From positions 1-64,000 of the forward strand of contig MLAK01001204.1 in the NCBI GenBank assembly GCA_001839685.1: a stretch of 64,000 nt of DNA. The letters run 5' to 3'. This document shows positions 26,047 to 58,718 of the stretch, piece by piece (the first letter of the stretch is position 1; each line of letters begins with the position of its first letter). A program made the translations under genes and the position numbers. The notes under the pieces were generated by a model. That model was given only the letters and a program-made list of their open reading frames with translations, was not told the DNA's origin and did no database searches. This DNA comes from Tritrichomonas foetus. Taxonomy: Eukaryota > Parabasalia > Tritrichomonadida > Tritrichomonadidae.

Positions 26047-26554
26047 TTGAACAAATTAACGGATAAAACGTAATTTCTCAAAAAGTGCCAATATTAAACG
26101 GACACCTCAAAATTCCCACAATAATGTGGTTACAATTTGATGATGAAACAATCCTGTAAAGAACAAAATCTTTCATTTTTAATGGAAGCAGTTTGACGAA
26201 CACATTTAAGAACTCAAAACTATTATATATTAGAGTAAGTACATAAAATTTAATTTATCATTGTGAATATTTTTTATTATTCTATTGTTCATGATGGCAT
26301 AATATTTAATTATATCATATCATATCATATTCTATCATACGTAAACTCACACTGGTTGTATAGCTGATCAATAAATTTGTAATTCACTTTCCAATCCTTC
26401 CATTTAATCATCGGTTATAAAGTTAATTTTAAAGGTTAATTGAATCAATTGTATCGTGACCATCAATTCTAGAAAAATGACAGAAACGATAGAAGCTCCA
26501 TGGCAGAAGTTTTTTGTGTTGAAATGACAAAAAAAATCCTTGCTTGATTTGGAA
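26047..26554. other. Intergenic promoter region between divergent genes
   Basis: Bidirectional spacer between the CFAP57-like and CUE/Smr genes. It contains a run of CATAT/ATCAT repeats near 26315-26340. No gene seen. Confidence 0.5.
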
Positions 26555-29392
26555 ATGAACGCAAATAAAAATGATAAGCTCGACCAAGATTTTCCTTCAC
26601 TAAATCCAAAACCCAAACCCAAGCCTAAGCCTAAAATTCAAAAACCCACCTTGGTACCAGTCGGTGAACCTTCAATTAATTCTTCGCCTGAAAAGACCGC
26701 CAACCAACATAATCAAACCAATGAGGCCAATCAAACTGATTCCAAAATAAATAATGACGCTAAAACCGACACTCAGCCCGCCGATAATCAAAGCGAAAAT
26801 ATTTCCAGTCCATCTCAAAGCAATAAAAGGGGTTTCAAGCCAGCAATTTCAAAAGATGCACAACAGAATAATCCTTCACCAAATAAATTCCGCAACTTCA
26901 AAAGAAGCAACAACCAGGATATCTCAAGTATCAAAAATAAGCCCAAAAAAGGATTTTCTCCTCAAAAAAATGCAGCAAGCCCATTCCAGAGAATAAAATC
27001 TTCAAAAGAATTAGGCTGCTCCTCACCTGAAGCCATCCAAAAAAGGAAAGCACGTGAATATGATATTAAACGGCTCCTTGAAATTTCCCAGCGTGATGAG
27101 GAAGAAGTGGCAAAGGCCTATGATGAATCAAAGGGTGATTTTGACCATGCTTTGGAGTTGCTTTTGTTAGAAAACTCAAAAGAGGAAAAGAAGGCGGCAC
27201 TAAATCAATTATTCTTCTTAAAAAGTTTGCAAATGAGGTTTCCAGATGTTCCTTCTGATGTTTTAGATGAAGCGATTCAAATGAAAGGATATAATGATAT
27301 TAATGAAATTATCCAATACATTGAATCATTCTCTGACATGGATGAAAGTTACGTAAAACATAAAAACGAAGAAATGGAAGAACGGGTCCGAAGCAGGGAA
27401 AGAAGGAAGAGGGAAAAAGAAGCGGAAAGAGAAAAAGTTCGTCAAGAAAGAGAAAGAAAAGAAAGAGAAAGGAAAGAAAACGCCAAAAAAGAAATAAATT
27501 TTGTATCTCCAGACGAAGCCCAGAGGAAAAAATACGCGCCTGATGTCGATCAATTTAAGTTGAATTTAGATAGTTTGAAATTTAGATTCCCTGATGTACC
27601 TGAAGATTCACTTCTTGAGGCGCTTAAGCGCAAGGATAATAATGTGGAAGCCGTCATAGAGGAAATCGAGTCTTTTCCAGAAATCGATGATGATTATATT
27701 CAAAAGGTGAAAGAAGAAAAAGAAAAAGAGAAAAAACGAAGGGAAATTCGAAGAAATACCCAAAGACTCCAAGAAAAGAAAGCAGCCAAACAACTGAATC
27801 CACATCGAAAGCCTTACACACCGAAAAATACTTTCCGTACTAGGCATAGAAAGCCAAACGAAGACAACCACAGTTTCGATAATAATGATGATAATAATGG
27901 TTCTGATGAGTTTCAAGTGAATTTACCAGATCAAAAAGTTTCGTTTACAAGGCGTGATGATGACATTCAAAAATTAAAAGGTACTTATCCAGATATTCCA
28001 GCCGATATTATAACCGATGTTTATGATAGTGTATTTCCGCCATCAGTTAGTTATGTCGCCGAACTTCTCTCTACACATCCAGTCGAGTATTTCGGACCAG
28101 GAAGTACAAGGAGCAACTTAATTAAATTATTTGCTGGTATTCCAGCTCAAATGATCGATGATACCCTTTCCCATATAACTAACGAAACAGCAGCAGCAGA
28201 TTTTATCAGAAATCAAATTGATTTACTGAGAACAAGACCAGAAAATATCTCATTTACAACATATATTGAACTCGATATGCATGGTGAAGATCCAAATATC
28301 AACAAAGCCTTGGATTGGGTACCCGTAATCCGTGATGCGTTAAATAGTGCATTGGCTCAGCATGTCGATATTGTTAGATTCATCACCGGTCAAGGAAGGC
28401 ATTCAAGTGGTGATCCAATCCTTAGACCACTTGTCATGCTCACTTGCACCAGACTTGACTTCATCTGTGAAGTCGACGTTGATAACCCTGGACGACTCTC
28501 ATGTAGAATCTCTTCACATGGTTATGCCAATCAAGCAGATCTCCGTAAGAGTACCCGAAAAGAAGAAAATATTGCTAAAAATATGCAATTAATCTCAGAA
28601 AAATTCCCAGATATACCGAAAAATTGTGTCAGAATTATTGCTTCTCTAGCTTCAAAGCGATCAAATATAGATCCAGTTAAATATACAGAAAGCTTTGAAG
28701 AAAAACTTGCTTATGCTGAAACAGTTGCAATTAATGAAGAAAGGCGTGCCAAAGCCGCAAAAAGAGTCCGAGTGATTTATTCTTTACAGAAAGAATTTCC
28801 ACAAATCCCCAAAGAAGTAATAGAAAAAGTTGTGCGTGAAAAGAAGTCTAAAAGCAAAGCTACAACGCTTCTTAATTTAATAATGAAAGAGGTTCCAATT
28901 GAACATATTCCTAATTTCGCTGATCTTGCATACAGAATTCAGTTCACACCAACAGAAAATATTATTGATGAATTGAAACTCAATAATTTTGACTTTGAAG
29001 AAACTTCTCATAAATTATTGACTGTTTCAATGGCTGGCGTCCAAGGTGCATTACAAGTAATGCAAGTTGATCTAGTATTGAACTCAACTAGAGCAGATGG
29101 ATCACCAAAATTCATACCATCAATTGAAATTGATCTCACAAATTGTGGAGTTGAAAAAGCCCAAAGAAGTATTGCAAGAATCATTGGTGGATTAAGCGAG
29201 AAGATGTTTTCAGAAATTATAATGTTGTTTGCACCTTTTAATTATGGAAGATGTGCAATTCCAGACATTCTTCCTTTTGTGACTGAATTGGCAGAAAAAA
29301 GTGAAAATGAATTCATGATTAATCATGATTCAACAAAGAAGCTCATTCATATGGCTATGCTCAAGAATTTCACAGATACAATGATACTGTAA
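26555..29392 (+). CDS. Multi-CUE and Smr domain protein, Cue2/N4BP2-like
   Basis: 945 codons. I chose the ATG at 26555; the frame is open slightly further upstream but has no ATG. The N-terminus (about 1-150) is disordered with a KPKPKPKPKPK stretch. A UBA-like segment (about 180-210) is followed by repeated CUE-like modules with the core (F/Y)P(D/Q)(V/I)P, seen five times (MRFPDVPSD, FRFPDVPED, GTYPDIPAD, EKFPDIPKN, KEFPQIPKE), with very charged Lys/Glu helices between. An Smr domain lies at about 567-650: ELDMHGEDPN supplies the D-x-H motif and ITGQGRHSSG the glycine-rich loop. CUE plus Smr is the plan of yeast Cue2, worm NONU-1 and human N4BP2, which bind ubiquitinated ribosomes and cut stalled mRNA. 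The role here is inferred. Confidence 0.85.
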   Translation: MNANKNDKLDQDFPSLNPKPKPKPKPKIQKPTLVPVGEPSINSSPEKTANQHNQTNEANQTDSKINNDAKTDTQPADNQSENISSPSQSNKRGFKPAISKDAQQNNPSPNKFRNFKRSNNQDISSIKNKPKKGFSPQKNAASPFQRIKSSKELGCSSPEAIQKRKAREYDIKRLLEISQRDEEEVAKAYDESKGDFDHALELLLLENSKEEKKAALNQLFFLKSLQMRFPDVPSDVLDEAIQMKGYNDINEIIQYIESFSDMDESYVKHKNEEMEERVRSRERRKREKEAEREKVRQERERKERERKENAKKEINFVSPDEAQRKKYAPDVDQFKLNLDSLKFRFPDVPEDSLLEALKRKDNNVEAVIEEIESFPEIDDDYIQKVKEEKEKEKKRREIRRNTQRLQEKKAAKQLNPHRKPYTPKNTFRTRHRKPNEDNHSFDNNDDNNGSDEFQVNLPDQKVSFTRRDDDIQKLKGTYPDIPADIITDVYDSVFPPSVSYVAELLSTHPVEYFGPGSTRSNLIKLFAGIPAQMIDDTLSHITNETAAADFIRNQIDLLRTRPENISFTTYIELDMHGEDPNINKALDWVPVIRDALNSALAQHVDIVRFITGQGRHSSGDPILRPLVMLTCTRLDFICEVDVDNPGRLSCRISSHGYANQADLRKSTRKEENIAKNMQLISEKFPDIPKNCVRIIASLASKRSNIDPVKYTESFEEKLAYAETVAINEERRAKAAKRVRVIYSLQKEFPQIPKEVIEKVVREKKSKSKATTLLNLIMKEVPIEHIPNFADLAYRIQFTPTENIIDELKLNNFDFEETSHKLLTVSMAGVQGALQVMQVDLVLNSTRADGSPKFIPSIEIDLTNCGVEKAQRSIARIIGGLSEKMFSEIIMLFAPFNYGRCAIPDILPFVTELAEKSENEFMINHDSTKKLIHMAMLKNFTDTMIL

Positions 29393-29631: not shown

Positions 29632-31434
29632 TTAAATAACAGTGTTTTCTGTGATGACTCTACCCTCAAGTTCATAACTCAAGTCTTCAATTTCATCGCC
29701 AGCATAAGTTTTTTCAGGTCTGAATTCCACTTCAGCATCATTTTCAATTGTCGCGCCAGCCTTCACTGCCCACTTCTTATGTAAATCCAATAAAAGCTTC
29801 TTTGCCGTGTCAGGTGAATCAACAGGAGCTCCAGGTGCATTCTTCACTGGTGCGAACTCATCTTCACGTTGCACTTTATAAAGTACAACATTATTACAAA
29901 GTTCAAGTGCGTCAAAAATGAATCGTTCAAACTTATGAACAGTTTCAGTCACTTTTTCACCATTTTCATTTACCACCTTCTCATTTTTAACTGCAACATG
30001 GTAAGGAAGTTGTGCGTTTGCTGCTTTTTCAATAATTTCGGTTGTAAAAAGATGCATTCCAGTATTTCCTACAATAAACTCATCACTTTTTCCTTCAGGA
30101 AGCTCAGAATACTCAACAACAACGGTTTTCCCGTTCTTTTTACATAAAGTTCCAATTTTTTCACCGCCGCCAACTTTTCTCACAACTTTTAAGGCTGCAT
30201 CACCTTCATCGTAGATCAGAGCACCAACGAAAGCAGGATCAGCTGGTCTAGCAAGCGCATTATCTATTGGATGAATGTCGACGTATTTGACGCCAAGTTT
30301 CTTCATTTCTTCGAGAGCTCCAGAATCCTTCAAACAAGCGAAAATTGCTCCATTTCCATTTGGTGCTGCAAGAACTTTCCATTTCTCACTTAACACAAAC
30401 TTTCCATTTGGATACTTTGCCGGCAGTGTTCTTTGCTTGATTAATTTCACACTTTTAACTCCGAAGCTTTGTGTGCGGATCAAATATGCAGCAATGGCAG
30501 AGTGCGTAGCGTCACTTGTCAGAATATAAGTTGGAATATTTTTGGAGCCGCCACTGCAGTACTTATTTTCCAGATATTTGATTCTCCTTAATTGGAGCTC
30601 CAAAAGTGTGGATTTTGATGGTATGTCAAGTTCCATCATGGCTTTTGGAACTGGTGCTGCTAAACGGCTTCCCTGCCCGCCTGCCATAATCACAACGGCC
30701 ACTTCACCATCTGATATGGCTTGAGTACCATTGTCCATTAAATCTGAGTGCTCTTCATCAGGTGTATCGCCAGGTAGCTCCACTGGTGAAATGTCAGATG
30801 TCGATGAATTCACGTCGATCGTTTTTTGGTCGTTGAAGTTCAGCATTCGGATTTGAGAGGCAAGCGAGCTCTTTTCTATTGAATTCAAGCTGTCGTAGAA
30901 AGTGAGAAGCTCGCTCGGGCACTTTTCTGGAAGCGATTTAACGAAAAAGTGGAAAGGAACTAAAGCCGTGATAACTGACTCGTAGACAAGGTCAAATCGT
31001 TTGATGTTCTCATTGGTGGAATAGCCAACGAGCCCCGTGGGGTGGGGGACCAGCTCACCAAGAGATTTATTTCCGTTAATGAGTTTCGAGGCAATGTGAT
31101 GTGGAATTATGAATTTTGTTGAGACACCAAATCCAAATTTGTTCTTTGTTCCATCTGAAATTGCGCATAAAGTGAACTCGTATAAATTATCAAATTCTCG
31201 ATCGCATCCCGATTCAACACTAATGAAATAGTCGGCATCTTTACATTCACAGTTGAAGATTCGGTTAATTGCTCCTCGTTTAGTTTCTTCAAGCGACATC
31301 GGCTGATCAGAGACATCAGATTTTGATGCAAAACCGTCAACTGTGAATTTAATCGTGTCTTTCAGGATCTTTTTTAATGCAAATTCAACAGCTGATACTT
31401 TGACCGAATTCCTTGAAGTGACAATAAATTTCAT
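29632..31434 (-). CDS. Fusion of DUF84/YjjX-like NTPase and UDP-GlcNAc pyrophosphorylase
   Basis: 600 codons from an ATG at 31434. Residues 1 to about 165 match the DUF84/YjjX non-canonical purine NTPase fold: TSRNSVKVSAVE, then SDQPMSLEETKRGAINR (about 42-58) and ISVESGCD. Residues about 166-600 are a UDP-N-acetylhexosamine pyrophosphorylase: a helical lead-in (SEKSSLASQI-like region near 185-195), nucleotide loop MAGGQGSRL (250-258) with VPK, AAPNGNGAIF (357-365), and HPIDNALARPADPAFVG (388-404). The first domain would hydrolyse ITP/XTP; the second makes UDP-GlcNAc from UTP and GlcNAc-1-P for glycans and GPI anchors. Both sets of motifs look intact in one continuous frame. I know of no described fusion of this kind. 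Confidence 0.9.
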   Translation of the reverse strand: MKFIVTSRNSVKVSAVEFALKKILKDTIKFTVDGFASKSDVSDQPMSLEETKRGAINRIFNCECKDADYFISVESGCDREFDNLYEFTLCAISDGTKNKFGFGVSTKFIIPHHIASKLINGNKSLGELVPHPTGLVGYSTNENIKRFDLVYESVITALVPFHFFVKSLPEKCPSELLTFYDSLNSIEKSSLASQIRMLNFNDQKTIDVNSSTSDISPVELPGDTPDEEHSDLMDNGTQAISDGEVAVVIMAGGQGSRLAAPVPKAMMELDIPSKSTLLELQLRRIKYLENKYCSGGSKNIPTYILTSDATHSAIAAYLIRTQSFGVKSVKLIKQRTLPAKYPNGKFVLSEKWKVLAAPNGNGAIFACLKDSGALEEMKKLGVKYVDIHPIDNALARPADPAFVGALIYDEGDAALKVVRKVGGGEKIGTLCKKNGKTVVVEYSELPEGKSDEFIVGNTGMHLFTTEIIEKAANAQLPYHVAVKNEKVVNENGEKVTETVHKFERFIFDALELCNNVVLYKVQREDEFAPVKNAPGAPVDSPDTAKKLLLDLHKKWAVKAGATIENDAEVEFRPEKTYAGDEIEDLSYELEGRVITENTVI

Positions 31435-31692: not shown

Positions 31693-32028
31693 TTAATACT
31701 TAAGACCCCAAACTGTTGTGATGCATTGCATTGTGTCATTGGACCATTGTTTTGTGACGCTACCATCGTTTTGTGGATCCCAAAGTGACATTGTAACAGT
31801 ATGGACGCCATTGCTCCTCTTTGAAAGAACAAGGCAGTTAGCGAGGTACTTGAATGGTTGGTATTTGTCATCGCTAAGTTCCTTTAAGATATCGCGGATA
31901 ATTTCTTCGCACCAGCCCTTAACTTCGTCGGCTTTGTATGTTTTGTCTTGGAGCTTCGAGCTAACGACTGAGTTGATGAGTTCTTGAATATCCTCTTTGA
32001 AATTTGGGAAGGAGTTGTTGTCAGCCAT
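31693..32028 (-). CDS. Tctex1-type dynein light chain (DYNLT family)
   Basis: 111 codons from an ATG at 32028, the usual length for the family (about 113). The helical first half (IQELINSVVSSKLQ, WCEEIIRDILKEL) leads to the conserved beta-strand half (YQPFKYLANCLVLSKRSNGVHTVTMSLWD, ending TTVWGLKY), which follows DYNLT1/3. These subunits bind dynein intermediate chains and cargo and work in both cytoplasmic and axonemal dynein. It lies on the same strand as the NTPase-UAP gene but 258 bp apart, so no shared transcript is implied. Confidence 0.95.
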   Translation of the reverse strand: MADNNSFPNFKEDIQELINSVVSSKLQDKTYKADEVKGWCEEIIRDILKELSDDKYQPFKYLANCLVLSKRSNGVHTVTMSLWDPQNDGSVTKQWSNDTMQCITTVWGLKY

Positions 32029-32996: not shown

Positions 32997-35387
32997 ATGA
33001 GCAAAATCGAAAATTCCTCTATCTTAAAAATCGAAAGAAAAGATGTCATGACATCTTCGGTTGTCCAAAAGTGCCGAGTTTTTCGTGATGTTCCACTCAA
33101 TTTACCAAAATGTCGAACAGCAATGATTTCTATTTTGCAAGCTTTTTCGCAAGACGCCCACTTCACTGAAAAAGATCGAACTGAGCTCTTTTTCTCACTC
33201 ACGCAATTATTTACTTCCCGCGATCATTACATCCACAGATTACTTTTGCTTCTCCTTAAGGAGATCCCAGTCAACAAGCACGACACTTTAATTCTCACCC
33301 ACTCGCTTTCGAAAGACATTTCTGCCTCTCAAACTTCACCTCAAGGCCAAGCAATCAGATGCTTCTGCGCCATTATCGATCCGACTAATGTTTTACTTCA
33401 CGAGCGTTTTCTCAAATTATCGATTGTATCGCCAACGCCTTACACTGCGTCAGCCGCCCTCTGTGGAGCCCTCCATCTGATCGAAGGCGGACGGAAAGAG
33501 GCGGTTATGCGCTGGGCTCCAGAAATTCGACAAGCATCAAAATCATCACAACGGTCAGTTCGTTTTCACGCCCTTCTTTTGCTCTATGCTCTCAAATCTG
33601 ATGACGGTTATGCAGCTGCCCAATTAGCCAACTCGCTTGAAGAGGGAAAGTCACAGCTTGAACAGTGCGTTTCCCTGGCTATCGTAGCGCAATCCATGAA
33701 GATCAAGCCATCGGACAATGCTTTACAATATTTCAATAAATGCATTATGTCAAACTCGCCAATTGTTCGTCTTGAAGCGATCCGTTTAGCACCACCTGAA
33801 CTTTCACTTCCTACATGTGATGCTTTATCATCTTTCCTCAGCGGCTCAACACTAAAGATGTTTGCGGCAGTTCGAACAATAGCAAATTCACCTAACATTC
33901 AACAATATGCACCACTTTTACCACGAATTCTTCATTTAATGAAGCATCAAAATTCATCACTTGCTGCAACAGCTGCAGTTTGTGTTTTAAAGCTTGGAAA
34001 TGAATCACATGTTGAAGTTGCCACCAAACGAATACTAAGAAATTGTAAACGATGGGCCGCACCACTTTTAAGAGCAGTTGCTGAAGAGAGCTGTAAATTT
34101 GCAGGAAAGTATCGAAATGAAAAATTAACAGATGTTGCAGTGTTCCTTTTAAGAATATCACGTGATCAATCTTGTAAGTTTGCAATTTTACGAGCACTTT
34201 TAACTACTGAAGGAATTCCACGTTCACAATTATTGCCAAGATTATCAGAATATCTTGAAGATTGGGATTCTGTTAGTGTTGCTAGAATTATTTGTGACTT
34301 TATCACAAATGAAGTTTCTCATTTAGAAGATCCATCTTCAGTCATTCCAGTTTTATTCAATCGTGTGAATTTAGATGTTCCAACTGTTCGAATGGCTGCT
34401 GTAAATACACTTGCTGCAATTGCGACGATTTCGGATGAAATGAAAAGCCGAATTCTACCGCTTTTACAGCTTTTCACATCTGATGAAGATGATTCTGTTC
34501 GTGAAGAGGTGATTCTATTCATAAATGCGTTGAAAACAGGACAAGATATGTCAAAAATATTCACTCCATTCTCTATTGAAGATCTTGAACGAAGTAAGAA
34601 TAAAGAAAACTTTGATGAAAATGATGATCATTCACAAGAAGGAGAAATTGTTGATGTAAATGGTGGTTTCGTTCCTGCTTCAATGAGACATGAATTTGAG
34701 CAATATGGTGAACTTGAATTCAAGACTGAACCAGTTGATTTGACTGATGCTGATGCGGAATTTGTTGTTTCTTATTTTGTTAATGTTTATAAGGAACATC
34801 TTGTTGTTGAATTCCTTCTAACAAACACAGTTGAGGGGTTAGATCTTGAAAATGTTACTGTATCACTTGAAGATGCCGATGTTGAAGAAACTATTCCAGT
34901 TGAATTAATTAAATACCAGCAAACTGTCTCACTTTGTACAGTTTTAAAGAGAGATAGACCAATGATCTTCAACAGGTATCGTGCGTCTCTTCTTTACAGC
35001 CAAGATGGAAACGATGAAGACTGGGAGCTCGGTGATGTTGAACTTGGAGTATCAACATGGGTTCACAGAGCCAAAATTAATTCAGTGGCTGATATTTGGG
35101 AACCAATGAAACCATCTGAAGTTGCAGCAGTGATGAAAGTACAAAATGTAAAAGGAACTACAGCTGGTATTCATAAAATAGAAAATGCACTGAAGTTATA
35201 TAAAGTTACAGAAGAGAAAGATAACAAAAAGACAACAATTGTATTCTATGGAAAAGATATATTGGATAATGATGTTATCATAATGACGCAGCTTGGTATT
35301 TCTCGAGGTGAAGTTGTGTGCAGGATAATTGTAAGATCATCAAGCAAAGAATTAAGTGAAGAAATAATGCAATCAATCGAATTTTAG
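32997..35387 (+). CDS. Coatomer subunit gamma (gamma-COP)
   Basis: 796 codons from an ATG at 32997, slightly shorter than the usual 870. The N-terminal 530 residues are the HEAT-like adaptin trunk (VVQKCRVFRDVPLNLPKCR at the start is typical of gamma-COP; RLEAIRLAPPEL and TVRMAAVNTLAAIA are repeat units). An acidic linker (about 535-560) leads to the appendage: a beta-sandwich from about 585 and the terminal platform subdomain (VADIWEPMKPSEVAAVMK onward) ending IIVRSSSKELSEEIMQSIEF. Gamma-COP is part of the COPI coat that returns vesicles from Golgi to ER and binds ArfGAP and cargo tails. The gene looks complete. The COPI-associated protein at 2.3 kb would work in the same route. Confidence 0.95.
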   Translation: MSKIENSSILKIERKDVMTSSVVQKCRVFRDVPLNLPKCRTAMISILQAFSQDAHFTEKDRTELFFSLTQLFTSRDHYIHRLLLLLLKEIPVNKHDTLILTHSLSKDISASQTSPQGQAIRCFCAIIDPTNVLLHERFLKLSIVSPTPYTASAALCGALHLIEGGRKEAVMRWAPEIRQASKSSQRSVRFHALLLLYALKSDDGYAAAQLANSLEEGKSQLEQCVSLAIVAQSMKIKPSDNALQYFNKCIMSNSPIVRLEAIRLAPPELSLPTCDALSSFLSGSTLKMFAAVRTIANSPNIQQYAPLLPRILHLMKHQNSSLAATAAVCVLKLGNESHVEVATKRILRNCKRWAAPLLRAVAEESCKFAGKYRNEKLTDVAVFLLRISRDQSCKFAILRALLTTEGIPRSQLLPRLSEYLEDWDSVSVARIICDFITNEVSHLEDPSSVIPVLFNRVNLDVPTVRMAAVNTLAAIATISDEMKSRILPLLQLFTSDEDDSVREEVILFINALKTGQDMSKIFTPFSIEDLERSKNKENFDENDDHSQEGEIVDVNGGFVPASMRHEFEQYGELEFKTEPVDLTDADAEFVVSYFVNVYKEHLVVEFLLTNTVEGLDLENVTVSLEDADVEETIPVELIKYQQTVSLCTVLKRDRPMIFNRYRASLLYSQDGNDEDWELGDVELGVSTWVHRAKINSVADIWEPMKPSEVAAVMKVQNVKGTTAGIHKIENALKLYKVTEEKDNKKTTIVFYGKDILDNDVIIMTQLGISRGEVVCRIIVRSSSKELSEEIMQSIEF

Positions 35388-55972: not shown

Positions 55973-56055
55973 CGTATATGTCAAATCTGACATTATTAAA
56001 GGTCAAATTTTGCCCATCATTGAAAATTTATGGTCATAAAAAATTTCTATCATAA

Positions 56056-57312
56056 ATGAGTTTTCTTAGTCGACTTTTCTCATTCACCGAATTAGTTCAA
56101 CCAGAAAAAAATAATATCATACCATACTTTAACCCACAATGTCCATCCAAACCTCGACGAAAACGCATCAATAATTTTCGTAAATTATTATCAAACCCAA
56201 CGAATGATGTTGCTTGCCAAACTGTTGCATCACAATTTACTAAGGCTAATACGCGACAAGCCAAACTAATACTTCCAGAAGTAAGAAATATCACAGATAA
56301 TTTTGACAATTCTGTTGACAATTCTGCTGACAACTCTGTTGACAACTCTATTAATAAATCTAACCACGAATCTATTGACAAACATATTAATAATTTTAAT
56401 GACGTATCGATTAATAATTCTAATGAAAATATTAATTTGAATATAAACCTAATCAGTGAAGTAAAGAAGCCAATTAATAGAATTGCCGTATTAAACATTC
56501 CATTTAATGTCAAAAATAAACCAAAAAAATATACACTAAACCTAAAAAAAAATAATTTTATCAAATCAACACTAAATTTTAACTTTTTGGAAGGCAAAAA
56601 GATTTTGCAAAAACTTTCGTCTAAAGAAAAATTGGAGTATGGGGAACTTCAAAAGATTAGTAATGAAACTCTCATTAACATTAATACATTAAAATCATGG
56701 CGCTACCAAATTTTGTCGAAGAAAAAAACGATAGCCAGTTTTTTGATTAATAAAAAGGGAGGAAGACATCGAATATTTTCAAATGCAGATGAACAACAGA
56801 TCTTCAAAAGTATTGTGGAAAAAATGGATTGTTGTTTAGATATCGACGATATCAAAGACATAGCAATGACCCACTTTTTAAAAACAGAAAGAGATCGATT
56901 GTATCTTGAGAAAATTAAATCATTGAATTTGACAACAGAAGAAGAAAAAAAGCAATTAAAAGATTTGATAGATTCAATGAGTGATCAGGAAGTTGATTCA
57001 CTCATTGAAATCCGATTTCATGGTTCTTATAAATGGATTCATAGCTTTTTACAAAGATACAATTTCTGTTTCACCAAGACTAAAACAAGTAAAGAAGGAA
57101 TTATTGATGAAATTTATTCGCAGAACTATGTTATTAGTTTAGTTGAAGCTTTCCATCAATTTCCAACCAATAAAATTATCAATATAGATGAAACTTGTGT
57201 AAACTATGTTAATGAACCATTTCGTATGCTTTCAATTAAAGGAAAATCACATTCTGTCAATATTCCAACACAAAAACAAAGTTTCACAAGCATAGGGATT
57301 ATTGATTCAGAA
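56056..57312 (+). CDS. Pogo/Tc1-type DDE transposase, C-terminal part in assembly gap
   Basis: Starts with the ATG at 56056, 84 bp inside the left repeat; 419 codons are readable before the gap at 57313. The N-terminus is low complexity, with a DNSVDNSADNSVDNS run near 83-97. Residues about 185-350 carry helix-turn-helix type DNA-binding sequence (ISNETLININTLKSWRYQIL, then KGGRHRIFSNADEQQIF and SYKWIHSFLQRYNFCFTK, like the CENP-B/HTH of pogo). The first catalytic aspartate is D378 in IINIDETCVNYVNEP, the usual DET motif. The second and third acidic residues must lie in the gap. The frame after the gap (57973 on) reads as lysines and no transposase motif. Confidence 0.85.
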
Positions 57313-57972
57313 NNNNNNNNNNNNNNNNNNNNNNNNNNNNNNNNNNNNNNNNNNNNNNNNNNNNNNNNNNNNNNNNNNNNNNNNNNNNNNNNNNNNNNNN
57401 NNNNNNNNNNNNNNNNNNNNNNNNNNNNNNNNNNNNNNNNNNNNNNNNNNNNNNNNNNNNNNNNNNNNNNNNNNNNNNNNNNNNNNNNNNNNNNNNNNNN
57501 NNNNNNNNNNNNNNNNNNNNNNNNNNNNNNNNNNNNNNNNNNNNNNNNNNNNNNNNNNNNNNNNNNNNNNNNNNNNNNNNNNNNNNNNNNNNNNNNNNNN
57601 NNNNNNNNNNNNNNNNNNNNNNNNNNNNNNNNNNNNNNNNNNNNNNNNNNNNNNNNNNNNNNNNNNNNNNNNNNNNNNNNNNNNNNNNNNNNNNNNNNNN
57701 NNNNNNNNNNNNNNNNNNNNNNNNNNNNNNNNNNNNNNNNNNNNNNNNNNNNNNNNNNNNNNNNNNNNNNNNNNNNNNNNNNNNNNNNNNNNNNNNNNNN
57801 NNNNNNNNNNNNNNNNNNNNNNNNNNNNNNNNNNNNNNNNNNNNNNNNNNNNNNNNNNNNNNNNNNNNNNNNNNNNNNNNNNNNNNNNNNNNNNNNNNNN
57901 NNNNNNNNNNNNNNNNNNNNNNNNNNNNNNNNNNNNNNNNNNNNNNNNNNNNNNNNNNNNNNNNNNNNNNNN
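57313..57972. other. Assembly gap of 660 N
   Basis: Unsequenced bases inside the transposon, ending against a run of 17 A. It removes the end of the transposase gene, so whether that gene is intact cannot be judged. Confidence 1.
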
Positions 57973-58718
57973 AAAAAAAAAAAAAAAAATCAAAAGACTC
58001 CAACTTTTAAAATAAAATTGAATACAGTCAAAATCTTATTTGAATAGAAATTGCATTCAAAAAGTTTATTGACTAAAAATATCTAATTAATTTCTTTCAA
58101 TTTTGTGGATAATGATGAACGTTTAATAATTTGTATTCAAGAGTCATATTTACGTTTTTTCCTATCTGATGAGATTTATAATAAATCAACAATAAATTAA
58201 TATTTAGTATCATGAATTGTTATTATAATATAAAAATTGAAGTCTTTTTTGAAATTTTCAAAATCACATAAAATTTCGAAAATTATTTTTTTGATTTTTT
58301 TTATGTCTTGAAAAACTTCAAACGGTATTCAATAAATTTTGCTTATTTTCATACTCGAATAAGCAAGGCGAGAAAAGTTGTAATGAATTAAGAAATGACA
58401 TTTTCAGGTTAAAACATCACATTTGTGAATTTCATATTAATATTTATTTGCTCAGCATGATGGTTGTTATGATGTTAAAGTCGATGTTAATTATTTTCAA
58501 TCATTGATTGGGAAACCCCTCATTAAATAATGATGTAATTTTTCCAAAAATTAATTATTGTTTTATTGGTTGTCATAAAGATTCAATTCGATAAACAAAT
58601 GTAAATTTTTACTTTATAATATTTCTTGAAGACTCTATGAGTCTAAAAGCACAAATTTTGAATGAAAAAAAGTTAGAAAAAGTTTTAATAAACGTTTTTC
58701 TCACAAAAATTTGAATGA
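57973..58718. other. Transposon 3' noncoding region
   Basis: AT-rich sequence between the gap and the right inverted repeat. No open frame of note; it may include the last few transposase codons if the gap length is not exact. Confidence 0.5.

What the first reader, a model, noticed from the sequence alone, without database searches (positions are those of the whole stretch)
29632..31434. NTP house-cleaning enzyme fused to UDP-GlcNAc pyrophosphorylase
One uninterrupted frame joins a DUF84/YjjX-like non-canonical purine NTPase (1-165) to a full UAP (166-600). Motifs of both are intact. The sanitising enzyme could keep ITP/XTP or side products away from a uridylyltransferase that uses UTP, or the NTPase domain may have gained a new substrate. 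I know of no described fusion of these two families.
Basis: partly seen in the sequence, partly recalled or inferred. Interest (0 to 1): 0.78.

Follow-up and report, generated by a model that had tools for sequence, protein, structure and literature searches.

The report
Trichomonad NTPase–sugar-nucleotide enzyme fusion
A cattle parasite and a relative make the enzyme that produces the sugar building block UDP-GlcNAc as one protein with a prokaryote-like nucleotide-cleaning domain, and in some copies one of the two active sites looks erased while the rest of the protein is kept.

Summary
The fusion is real. Minus-strand 29632-31434 is one 600-codon frame: DUF84 (YjjX-like NTPase; residues 7-161, E 2e-32) plus a full UDP-GlcNAc pyrophosphorylase (UAP; 166-600). 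The genome (Tritrichomonas foetus by sequence match) has three fused paralogues; the searches found no separate DUF84, separate UAP or GlmU there. Histomonas has two; other homologues are mostly unnamed. UAP and DUF84 trees each put the fused proteins on one side of a branch (100/100, 100/99): one old fusion is the simplest reading.

One group on the UAP tree (14 proteins plus C39) has lost most DUF84 core residues; its 14 keep UAP and a folded-looking DUF84, C39 lost both. Four others keep DUF84 and have a degraded UAP. In 33 of 34 fused rows a nine-residue stretch typical of standalone DUF84 is missing, and T. foetus also has a HAM1-type ITPase, so ITP/XTP guarding of UAP is not established.

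Best reading: a rigid bifunctional enzyme whose NTPase body became structurally needed, with later loss of one activity in some paralogues. Activities are untested and the NTP substrate is unknown.

The parts
29632..31434 (-). Gene for the 600-aa DUF84-UAP fusion protein (A type, both sets of core residues intact)
   Evidence: Single open frame ATG...TAA; paralogues and homologues with the same architecture
30940..31434 (-). Residues 1-165: DUF84 / YjjX-like NTPase domain
29635..30939 (-). Residues 166-600: complete UDP-GlcNAc pyrophosphorylase (UAP) domain including its own N-terminal part
31399..31419 (-). DUF84 motif T-S-R-N-S-V-K, residues 6-12 (N9, K12)
   Evidence: K12 in 13 of 13 A, 0 of 14 B, 118 of 118 standalone; N9 in 11 of 13, 3 of 14, 118 of 118
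31261..31320 (-). DUF84 motif S-D-V-S-D-Q-P...E-E-T-K-R-G-A-I-N-R, residues 39-58
   Evidence: S39, P45, E50, G54 in 13 of 13 A; S39, E50, G54 in 0 of 14 B, P45 in 1 of 14
31207..31221 (-). DUF84 motif S-V-E-S-G, residues 72-76 (E74, putative catalytic or metal-binding acid; role inferred)
   Evidence: E74 in 13 of 13 A, 1 of 14 B, 118 of 118 standalone
31036..31056 (-). Site of the missing nine-residue DUF84 stretch (residues 127-133)
   Evidence: Gap in 33 of 34 fused rows against D...N of standalone DUF84 proteins, with the following K-Q replaced (P130, H131 here); the exception P0123 is a 223-aa fragment
30997..30999 (-). DUF84 Arg146
   Evidence: 13 of 13 A, 0 of 14 B, 118 of 118 standalone
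30643..30681 (-). UAP nucleotide-binding motif GGQGSRLAAPVPK, residues 252-264
   Evidence: G252, G253, R257, K264 in 85 of 85 standalone UAPs, 13 of 13 A and 14 of 14 B; G259 replaced by A here
30349..30357 (-). UAP GNG loop, residues 360-362
   Evidence: 13 of 13 A and 14 of 14 B
30262..30264 (-). UAP Asp391 of the IDN motif
   Evidence: 13 of 13 A, 13 of 14 B (E in P0019)
30112..30114 (-). UAP Glu441 of the EYSE motif
   Evidence: 13 of 13 A, 14 of 14 B
29914..29922 (-). UAP F505-I-F507, aligned to human AGX1 F381/F383
   Evidence: alignment, conservation; the roles in AGX1 are recalled
29842..29844 (-). UAP Lys531, aligned to AGX1 K407
   Evidence: alignment, conservation; the role in AGX1 is recalled

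Best explanation
A single old event joined a prokaryotic-type DUF84 (YjjX-like) NTPase in front of a complete eukaryotic UAP in an ancestor of Tritrichomonas and Histomonas. The window gene encodes the bifunctional form. Its UAP half makes UDP-GlcNAc from UTP and GlcNAc-1-P; it and its paralogue C173 are the only genes found in this genome with an intact-looking UAP. Its DUF84 half is an NTPase whose core site is kept by selection, probably with an altered base preference because a conserved stretch is gone. The DUF84 body packs rigidly against UAP and became part of its structure. After duplication, one paralogue lineage (B: C173 and relatives) lost the NTPase site but kept the domain as scaffold; a few other proteins kept the NTPase and lost UAP. 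Shown here: the architecture, a tree pattern that fits one origin, and which conserved residues each protein keeps. Inferred: the activities, the substrate shift, the rigid packing and the scaffold role.
For: Both domains above cut-off in one frame. Three fused paralogues; PF01931 matched only those three, PF01704 those plus two with far higher PF01704 scores (507 and 458 bits against 137-82) that I take for UDP-glucose pyrophosphorylases. No GlmU over its cut-off. UAP tree: 29 fused rows one side of a branch 100/100 (against 30 of 85 standalone UAPs), the 15 rows with the DUF84 site lost one side of a branch 100/98, though the tree used no DUF84 letters. DUF84 tree: 18 fused rows one side 100/99 (against 40 of 118 standalone). 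Core DUF84 columns: A-A identity 0.98 against 0.49 elsewhere (78 pairs); B-B 0.25 against 0.41 (91 pairs, C39 left out). Columns conserved in A and shared with standalone DUF84 are kept in B in 5.4 of 14 on average (22 columns), fused-clade-specific ones in 9.6 of 14 (18 columns), Mann-Whitney p 0.009. DUF84/UAP difference ratio 1.11 in A, 1.69 in B. AlphaFold2 pLDDT 94.0, pTM 0.93 for the window protein; 92.1, 0.92 for a B protein.
Against: No activity, expression or structure was measured. Groups A and B were defined by the motif table and the 12 core columns were picked after seeing it, so their core-column contrast is partly built in; the independent support is the grouping of B on the UAP tree. 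The p value treats columns as independent and rows are related. The UAP tree carries a long-branch warning for the stem that separates fused rows from standalone ones (P0092), and C39 (0.92) and P0009 (0.95) are long; its root is a midpoint. No PAE or coordinates were available, so the interface was not inspected; the B model's alignment contained A proteins, and its VIA list did not reach the DUF84 part. UAP columns G259, G265, M305, F332 and G363 are replaced in the window protein, so kinetics or sugar preference may differ. Only T. foetus and Histomonas are named among the fused proteins; the rest are unnamed database proteins whose gene models I could not check, including three of the four UAP-degraded ones (418-488 aa). 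P0016 in B keeps E74 and N9; P0019 in B has UAP D391E.
Confidence: 0.57

Rival explanations
1. Guard model: DUF84 hydrolyses ITP/XTP or damaged NTPs next to UAP so that UAP or its product pool is not fouled.
For: Core DUF84 residues kept in the 13 A proteins (A was defined by this). NCBIfam has a model of DUF84 joined to another PPi-releasing nucleotidyltransferase (NF002250, PPAT/NTP phosphatase).
Against: A separate HAM1-type ITPase gene exists. 33 of 34 fused rows lack a stretch conserved in standalone relatives, and the window protein is below the inosine/xanthosine triphosphatase cut-off. B proteins keep UAP residues without the NTPase ones. UAP takes UTP, which a purine NTP would not obviously displace (general knowledge).
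Confidence: 0.15
2. Regulatory model: A, B and UAP-dead subunits assemble into heteromers; DUF84 senses or turns over a nucleotide and thereby sets UAP activity, as the non-catalytic GMPPA does for GMPPB.
For: Retention of a DUF84 domain without its core residues across the B group, clade-specific residues kept in A and B alike, an open 603-codon C39 frame with both sites eroded. GMPPA precedent: start of the abstract of PMC11228364 in the search listing.
Against: No evidence of oligomers. C39 could be a decaying gene although its frame is open. Co-occurrence of A and B in one species is shown only for T. foetus and Histomonas.
Confidence: 0.2
3. Neutral bundling: the two activities are unrelated and were joined by chance; DUF84 remains a general house-cleaning enzyme carried on UAP.
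For: PF01931 matched only the three fused genes in this genome, so DUF84 activity would have to come from them. Some proteins keep only one set of core residues, and P0033, P0034 and P0052 (488, 483, 418 aa) have shortened, degraded UAP halves.
Against: In T. foetus and Histomonas no separate DUF84 or UAP protein was found; the DUF84 body without its core residues is kept through the B group, with fused-specific residues conserved.
Confidence: 0.22
4. Assembly or annotation artefact joining two neighbouring genes.
For: None found. The public T. foetus protein for C173 (P0028) starts inside DUF84 at a TTG, so that annotation alone would hide the fusion.
Against: Three separate loci in the genome, two Histomonas proteins and 24 further database homologues of similar length.
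Confidence: 0.01

Closest known systems
YjjX / VC0702 (DUF84, PF01931; E. coli YjjX is described as an ITPase/XTPase)
   Different: Fused to UAP; lacks a nine-residue stretch; S at 72 and 75 where standalone relatives have G (98%, 97%); below the TIGR00258 cut-off (87.7 of 117.1 bits)
Eukaryotic UDP-GlcNAc pyrophosphorylase (human AGX1, insect and fungal UAP)
   Same: Whole domain from residue 166; 13 of 13 positions examined
   Different: N-terminal DUF84; G259A, G265A, M305L, F332I, G363A
PPAT-DUF84 fusion (NCBIfam NF002250 / PRK01170)
   Same: DUF84 in one chain with a PPi-releasing nucleotidyltransferase (model description)
   Different: Other partner family; DUF84 at the C-terminal side (profile 151-313 of 322). 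Only the profile match was seen here
GMPPA/GMPPB GDP-mannose pyrophosphorylase pair
   Same: A sugar-nucleotide pyrophosphorylase with a non-catalytic paralogue (start of the abstract of PMC11228364 in a listing)
   Different: No NTPase domain (recalled); here the eroded site in B is the NTPase's, not the pyrophosphorylase's
Bacterial GlmU
   Same: Bifunctional protein that makes UDP-GlcNAc (recalled)
   Different: Partner is an acetyltransferase (recalled); none over cut-off in this genome

Membership tests
DUF84 / NTPase_I-T (PF01931) | Profile score over the curated cut-off | tested here: met
   112.7 bits, cut-off 25
DUF84 / NTPase_I-T (PF01931) | Core residues conserved in standalone members | tested here: met
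   12 of 12 core columns chosen by me; 28 of 39 of the broader conserved set
DUF84 / NTPase_I-T (PF01931) | YjjX fold | tested here: met
Inosine/xanthosine triphosphatase equivalog (TIGR00258) | Score over the equivalog cut-off | tested here: not met
   87.7 bits, cut-off 117.1; so not filed as an ITPase/XTPase
Inosine/xanthosine triphosphatase equivalog (TIGR00258) | Stretch with D...N and K-Q conserved in 118 standalone DUF84 proteins | tested here: not met
   D and N fall in a nine-residue gap, K and Q are P and H
Inosine/xanthosine triphosphatase equivalog (TIGR00258) | Hydrolysis of ITP/XTP | not testable with these tools
   No assay
UDP-GlcNAc pyrophosphorylase (UAP) | UDPGP profile, and UAPs as the nearest solved relatives | tested here: met
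UDP-GlcNAc pyrophosphorylase (UAP) | Substrate-contact residues | tested here: met
   13 of 13 positions examined; the choice of positions rests on conservation and recalled AGX1 contacts
UDP-GlcNAc pyrophosphorylase (UAP) | Formation of UDP-GlcNAc | not testable with these tools
   No assay

The most novel reading that the evidence does not exclude
A family of sugar-nucleotide enzymes in which an NTPase domain and a pyrophosphorylase domain are obligately built as one body, and paralogues with complementary dead sites (NTPase-dead, UAP-dead, doubly dead) assemble into heteromers where NTP turnover gates UDP-GlcNAc output, for instance on entry into the HexNAc-walled cyst.
Probability: 0.15. 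Interest if true: 0.8.

Novelty: new variant of a known kind. Interest (0 to 1): 0.57.

Why it matters
UDP-GlcNAc is the donor for N-glycans and GlcNAc polymers (general knowledge). T. foetus was recently reported to form true cysts with a wall rich in N-acetylated hexosamines (PMC13332039, passages read); [quoted passage not shown] If the only UAPs of this parasite carry an NTPase body that known UAP structures lack, the enzyme differs from the host's in architecture. The family also offers a natural experiment on what a fusion is for: one active site erased, the domain kept.

Tried and rejected
Assembly join: rejected by three loci plus other proteins. PPi removal as the reason for the fusion, for want of another PPase: weakened, seven soluble pyrophosphatase matches in the genome. 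DUF84 as the only ITP cleaner: weakened, one HAM1-type gene present. Bacterial GlmU as an alternative: no match over the cut-off; the 16 weak ones (best 46 bits) were not followed. hhalign of standalone DUF84 with the genome's HAM1, to place the missing stretch relative to the ITPase base pocket: no useful alignment, so its role in base recognition stays recalled inference. The single 164-aa DUF84 query found only P0121; the 12-row profile listed mostly proteins of standalone length, the named ones nearly all bacterial inosine/xanthosine triphosphatases, and a pattern scan gave 38 prokaryote loci, not used further. No donor lineage could be named: the fused rows sit on a long stem (0.87), and the direction of transfer was not tested. 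Whether Trichomonas vaginalis has the fusion is not settled: no protein so named is among the 120 listed of 930. VIA-align of the B model did not list YjjX in its 50 rows: inconclusive. Nine paper searches listed no paper that I recognised as describing the fusion; I saw listings, and passages by term in PMC3899018, PMC12393044, PMC4319933, PMC9237125, PMC7865087, PMC13332039 and PMC4053834. The single hit was a prefix match (DUF849).

Rows dropped or not used: P0121 and P0123 from the standalone DUF84 set (118 of the 120 listed of 393 used); P0052 from the standalone UAP set (85 of P0035-P0120, of 120 listed of 930); P0033, P0034, P0052, P0121 and P0123 from the UAP tree; B rows and C39 from the DUF84 tree; C39 and the UAP-degraded rows from the A/B identity and retention counts. 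P0028-P0032 (UAP-only or truncated) were in the first motif table but in no count.

Full report
What is there. The minus-strand frame 29632-31434 is exactly as described: ATG to TAA, 600 codons. Pfam places PF01931 (DUF84, now NTPase_I-T) at 7-161 and PF01704 (UDPGP) at 242-566, both far above cut-off. Comparison with solved structures puts the second part closest to UDP-GlcNAc pyrophosphorylases (8yp3, human AGX1/AGX2) and the first to VC0702 and YjjX. A 600-codon open frame is not expected by chance at this stop frequency (about 1e-16).

Whose genome. The window is part of contig C811 of a 63.7 Mb, 1064-contig genome. Its contig C173 has 105,549 bases, the same as the contig of a public protein named Tritrichomonas foetus (P0028), and that protein is identical to residues 107-593 of the C173 frame except for the first residue, where its TTG start is read as M. 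So the genome is T. foetus or all but identical to it.

The fusion is old and general in what could be seen. The own genome has three matches to the whole protein: the window, C173 (55%, 1-589) and C39 (42%, 1-586), each without stops. PF01931 matches these three only; PF01704 matches them and two more that score 507 and 458 bits against 137-82 for the fused ones, which I take to be UDP-glucose pyrophosphorylases. No GlmU exceeds its cut-off. In the protein database P0002-P0027 are relatives of 573-633 aa, 23 of 26 with both Pfam domains, two of them from Histomonas meleagridis (P0005, P0021) (120 of 930 hits listed). On a tree of UAP parts the 29 fused rows lie on one side of a branch (100/100) opposite 30 standalone UAPs; the program warns of long branches meeting there. 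On a tree of DUF84 parts 18 fused rows lie opposite 40 standalone ones (100/99, stem 0.87). One fusion event is the simplest reading.

Complementary loss. I took columns conserved in 118 standalone DUF84 proteins and in 85 standalone UAPs and scored every fused protein. Thirteen (A: window, P0002-P0008, P0010, P0012, P0014, P0020, P0026) keep 23-29 of 39 DUF84 and 43-47 of 50 UAP columns. Fourteen (B: C173, P0011, P0013, P0015-P0019, P0021-P0025, P0027) keep 43-44 of 50 UAP columns but 7-14 of 39 DUF84 columns. P0009, P0033, P0034 and P0052 keep 24-26 of 39 DUF84 and 13-23 of 50 UAP columns. C39 has 13 of 39 and 31 of 50, with changes at R257, E441 and F507. B with C39 is one side of a branch (100/98) on a tree that used no DUF84 letters, so loss of the NTPase site in one ancestor is the simplest account; C39's own place is unsure, its branch being long (0.92).

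How strong is the contrast. At 12 core DUF84 columns, A proteins are 98% identical to each other against 49% elsewhere in the domain; B proteins 25% against 41%. K12, S39, V41, E50, G54 and R146 are in 13 of 13 A and 0 of 14 B; E74 in 13 and 1 (P0016, which has lost K12, E50, G54 and R146); N9 in 11 and 3. The groups were defined by this motif region and the 12 columns were chosen afterwards, so the contrast is partly built in; what is not built in is that B holds together on the UAP tree and that its UAP residues are kept (D391E in P0019 is the one change at the 13 positions). The DUF84 domain was kept in B: columns conserved in A but rare in standalone DUF84 (18) are retained in B in 9.6 of 14 on average, the shared ones (22) in 5.4 (p 0.009, columns treated as independent). 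R79, F81, D82, Y85, F102, S105 and F163 are conserved in A and B alike and rare in standalone proteins: candidates for contacts with UAP. Pfam still finds PF01931 in C173 (37 bits), C39 (51.5) and P0021 (31.7), not in P0027.

A changed NTPase. In 33 of 34 fused rows, A types included, a nine-residue stretch that in 118 standalone relatives carries a D (98%) and an N (97%) is missing, and the K (98%) and Q (93%) that follow are replaced (P130 and H131 in the window protein); the exception, P0123, is a 223-aa fragment. By recalled analogy with ITPA-fold enzymes this region lies near the base; an attempt to show it by profile alignment failed. The protein also falls short of the inosine/xanthosine triphosphatase cut-off. 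I therefore do not file it as an ITPase/XTPase. Maf proteins, of similar fold, act on modified UTP and CTP (PMC3899018: start of the abstract in a listing, and passages), which makes a pyrimidine or modified UTP a reasonable candidate.

How it most likely works. The UAP half makes UDP-GlcNAc. The DUF84 half of A proteins hydrolyses some NTP. The DUF84 body is structurally part of the protein, so paralogues could drop its chemistry but not the domain. A guard against ITP/XTP is possible but not favoured: a HAM1-type gene is present and B proteins do without. PPi removal is not needed, with seven soluble PPase matches. Neutral bundling is not excluded: P0033, P0034 and P0052 have shortened, degraded UAP halves, so the pair can come apart. 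A heteromeric regulatory enzyme, for which GMPPA/GMPPB is a precedent (start of an abstract in a listing), is the boldest reading not excluded.

Context. T. foetus forms cysts with a wall rich in glucosamine and galactosamine (PMC13332039, passages), which would need a supply of UDP-HexNAc. No expression data for these genes were seen. Neighbours in the window (a CUE-domain protein, a Tctex-1 family protein and a coatomer gamma-like protein) give no functional hint.

Noticed in passing
L002:1501-3279 (G000:C173): The public T. foetus protein P0028 (487 aa) starts at a TTG inside the DUF84 domain, although the frame is open with an ATG 106 codons upstream; that annotation hides the fusion.
   Followed up: yes
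L003:1471-3279 (G000:C39): Third paralogue with both active sites eroded but a 603-codon open frame and a long branch (0.92): a possible double pseudoenzyme or a decaying gene.
   Followed up: partly
window 30643-30681: UAP G259 and G265 are near-invariant in standalone UAPs. In 14 of 14 B proteins they are R or K, and A; among the 13 A proteins P0010 and P0020 keep both, P0012 and P0014 keep G259, P0005-P0008 keep G265, the rest neither.
   Followed up: partly
window 56001-58000: Very AT-rich stretch (GC 0.191, AT skew 0.17) that coincides with a 663-aa frame at 56056-58047; perhaps a low-complexity protein.
   Followed up: no
window 26540-29392, 31693-32028, 32997-35387: Neighbouring genes by Pfam: CUE-domain protein, Tctex-1 family protein, coatomer gamma-like protein.
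   Followed up: partly
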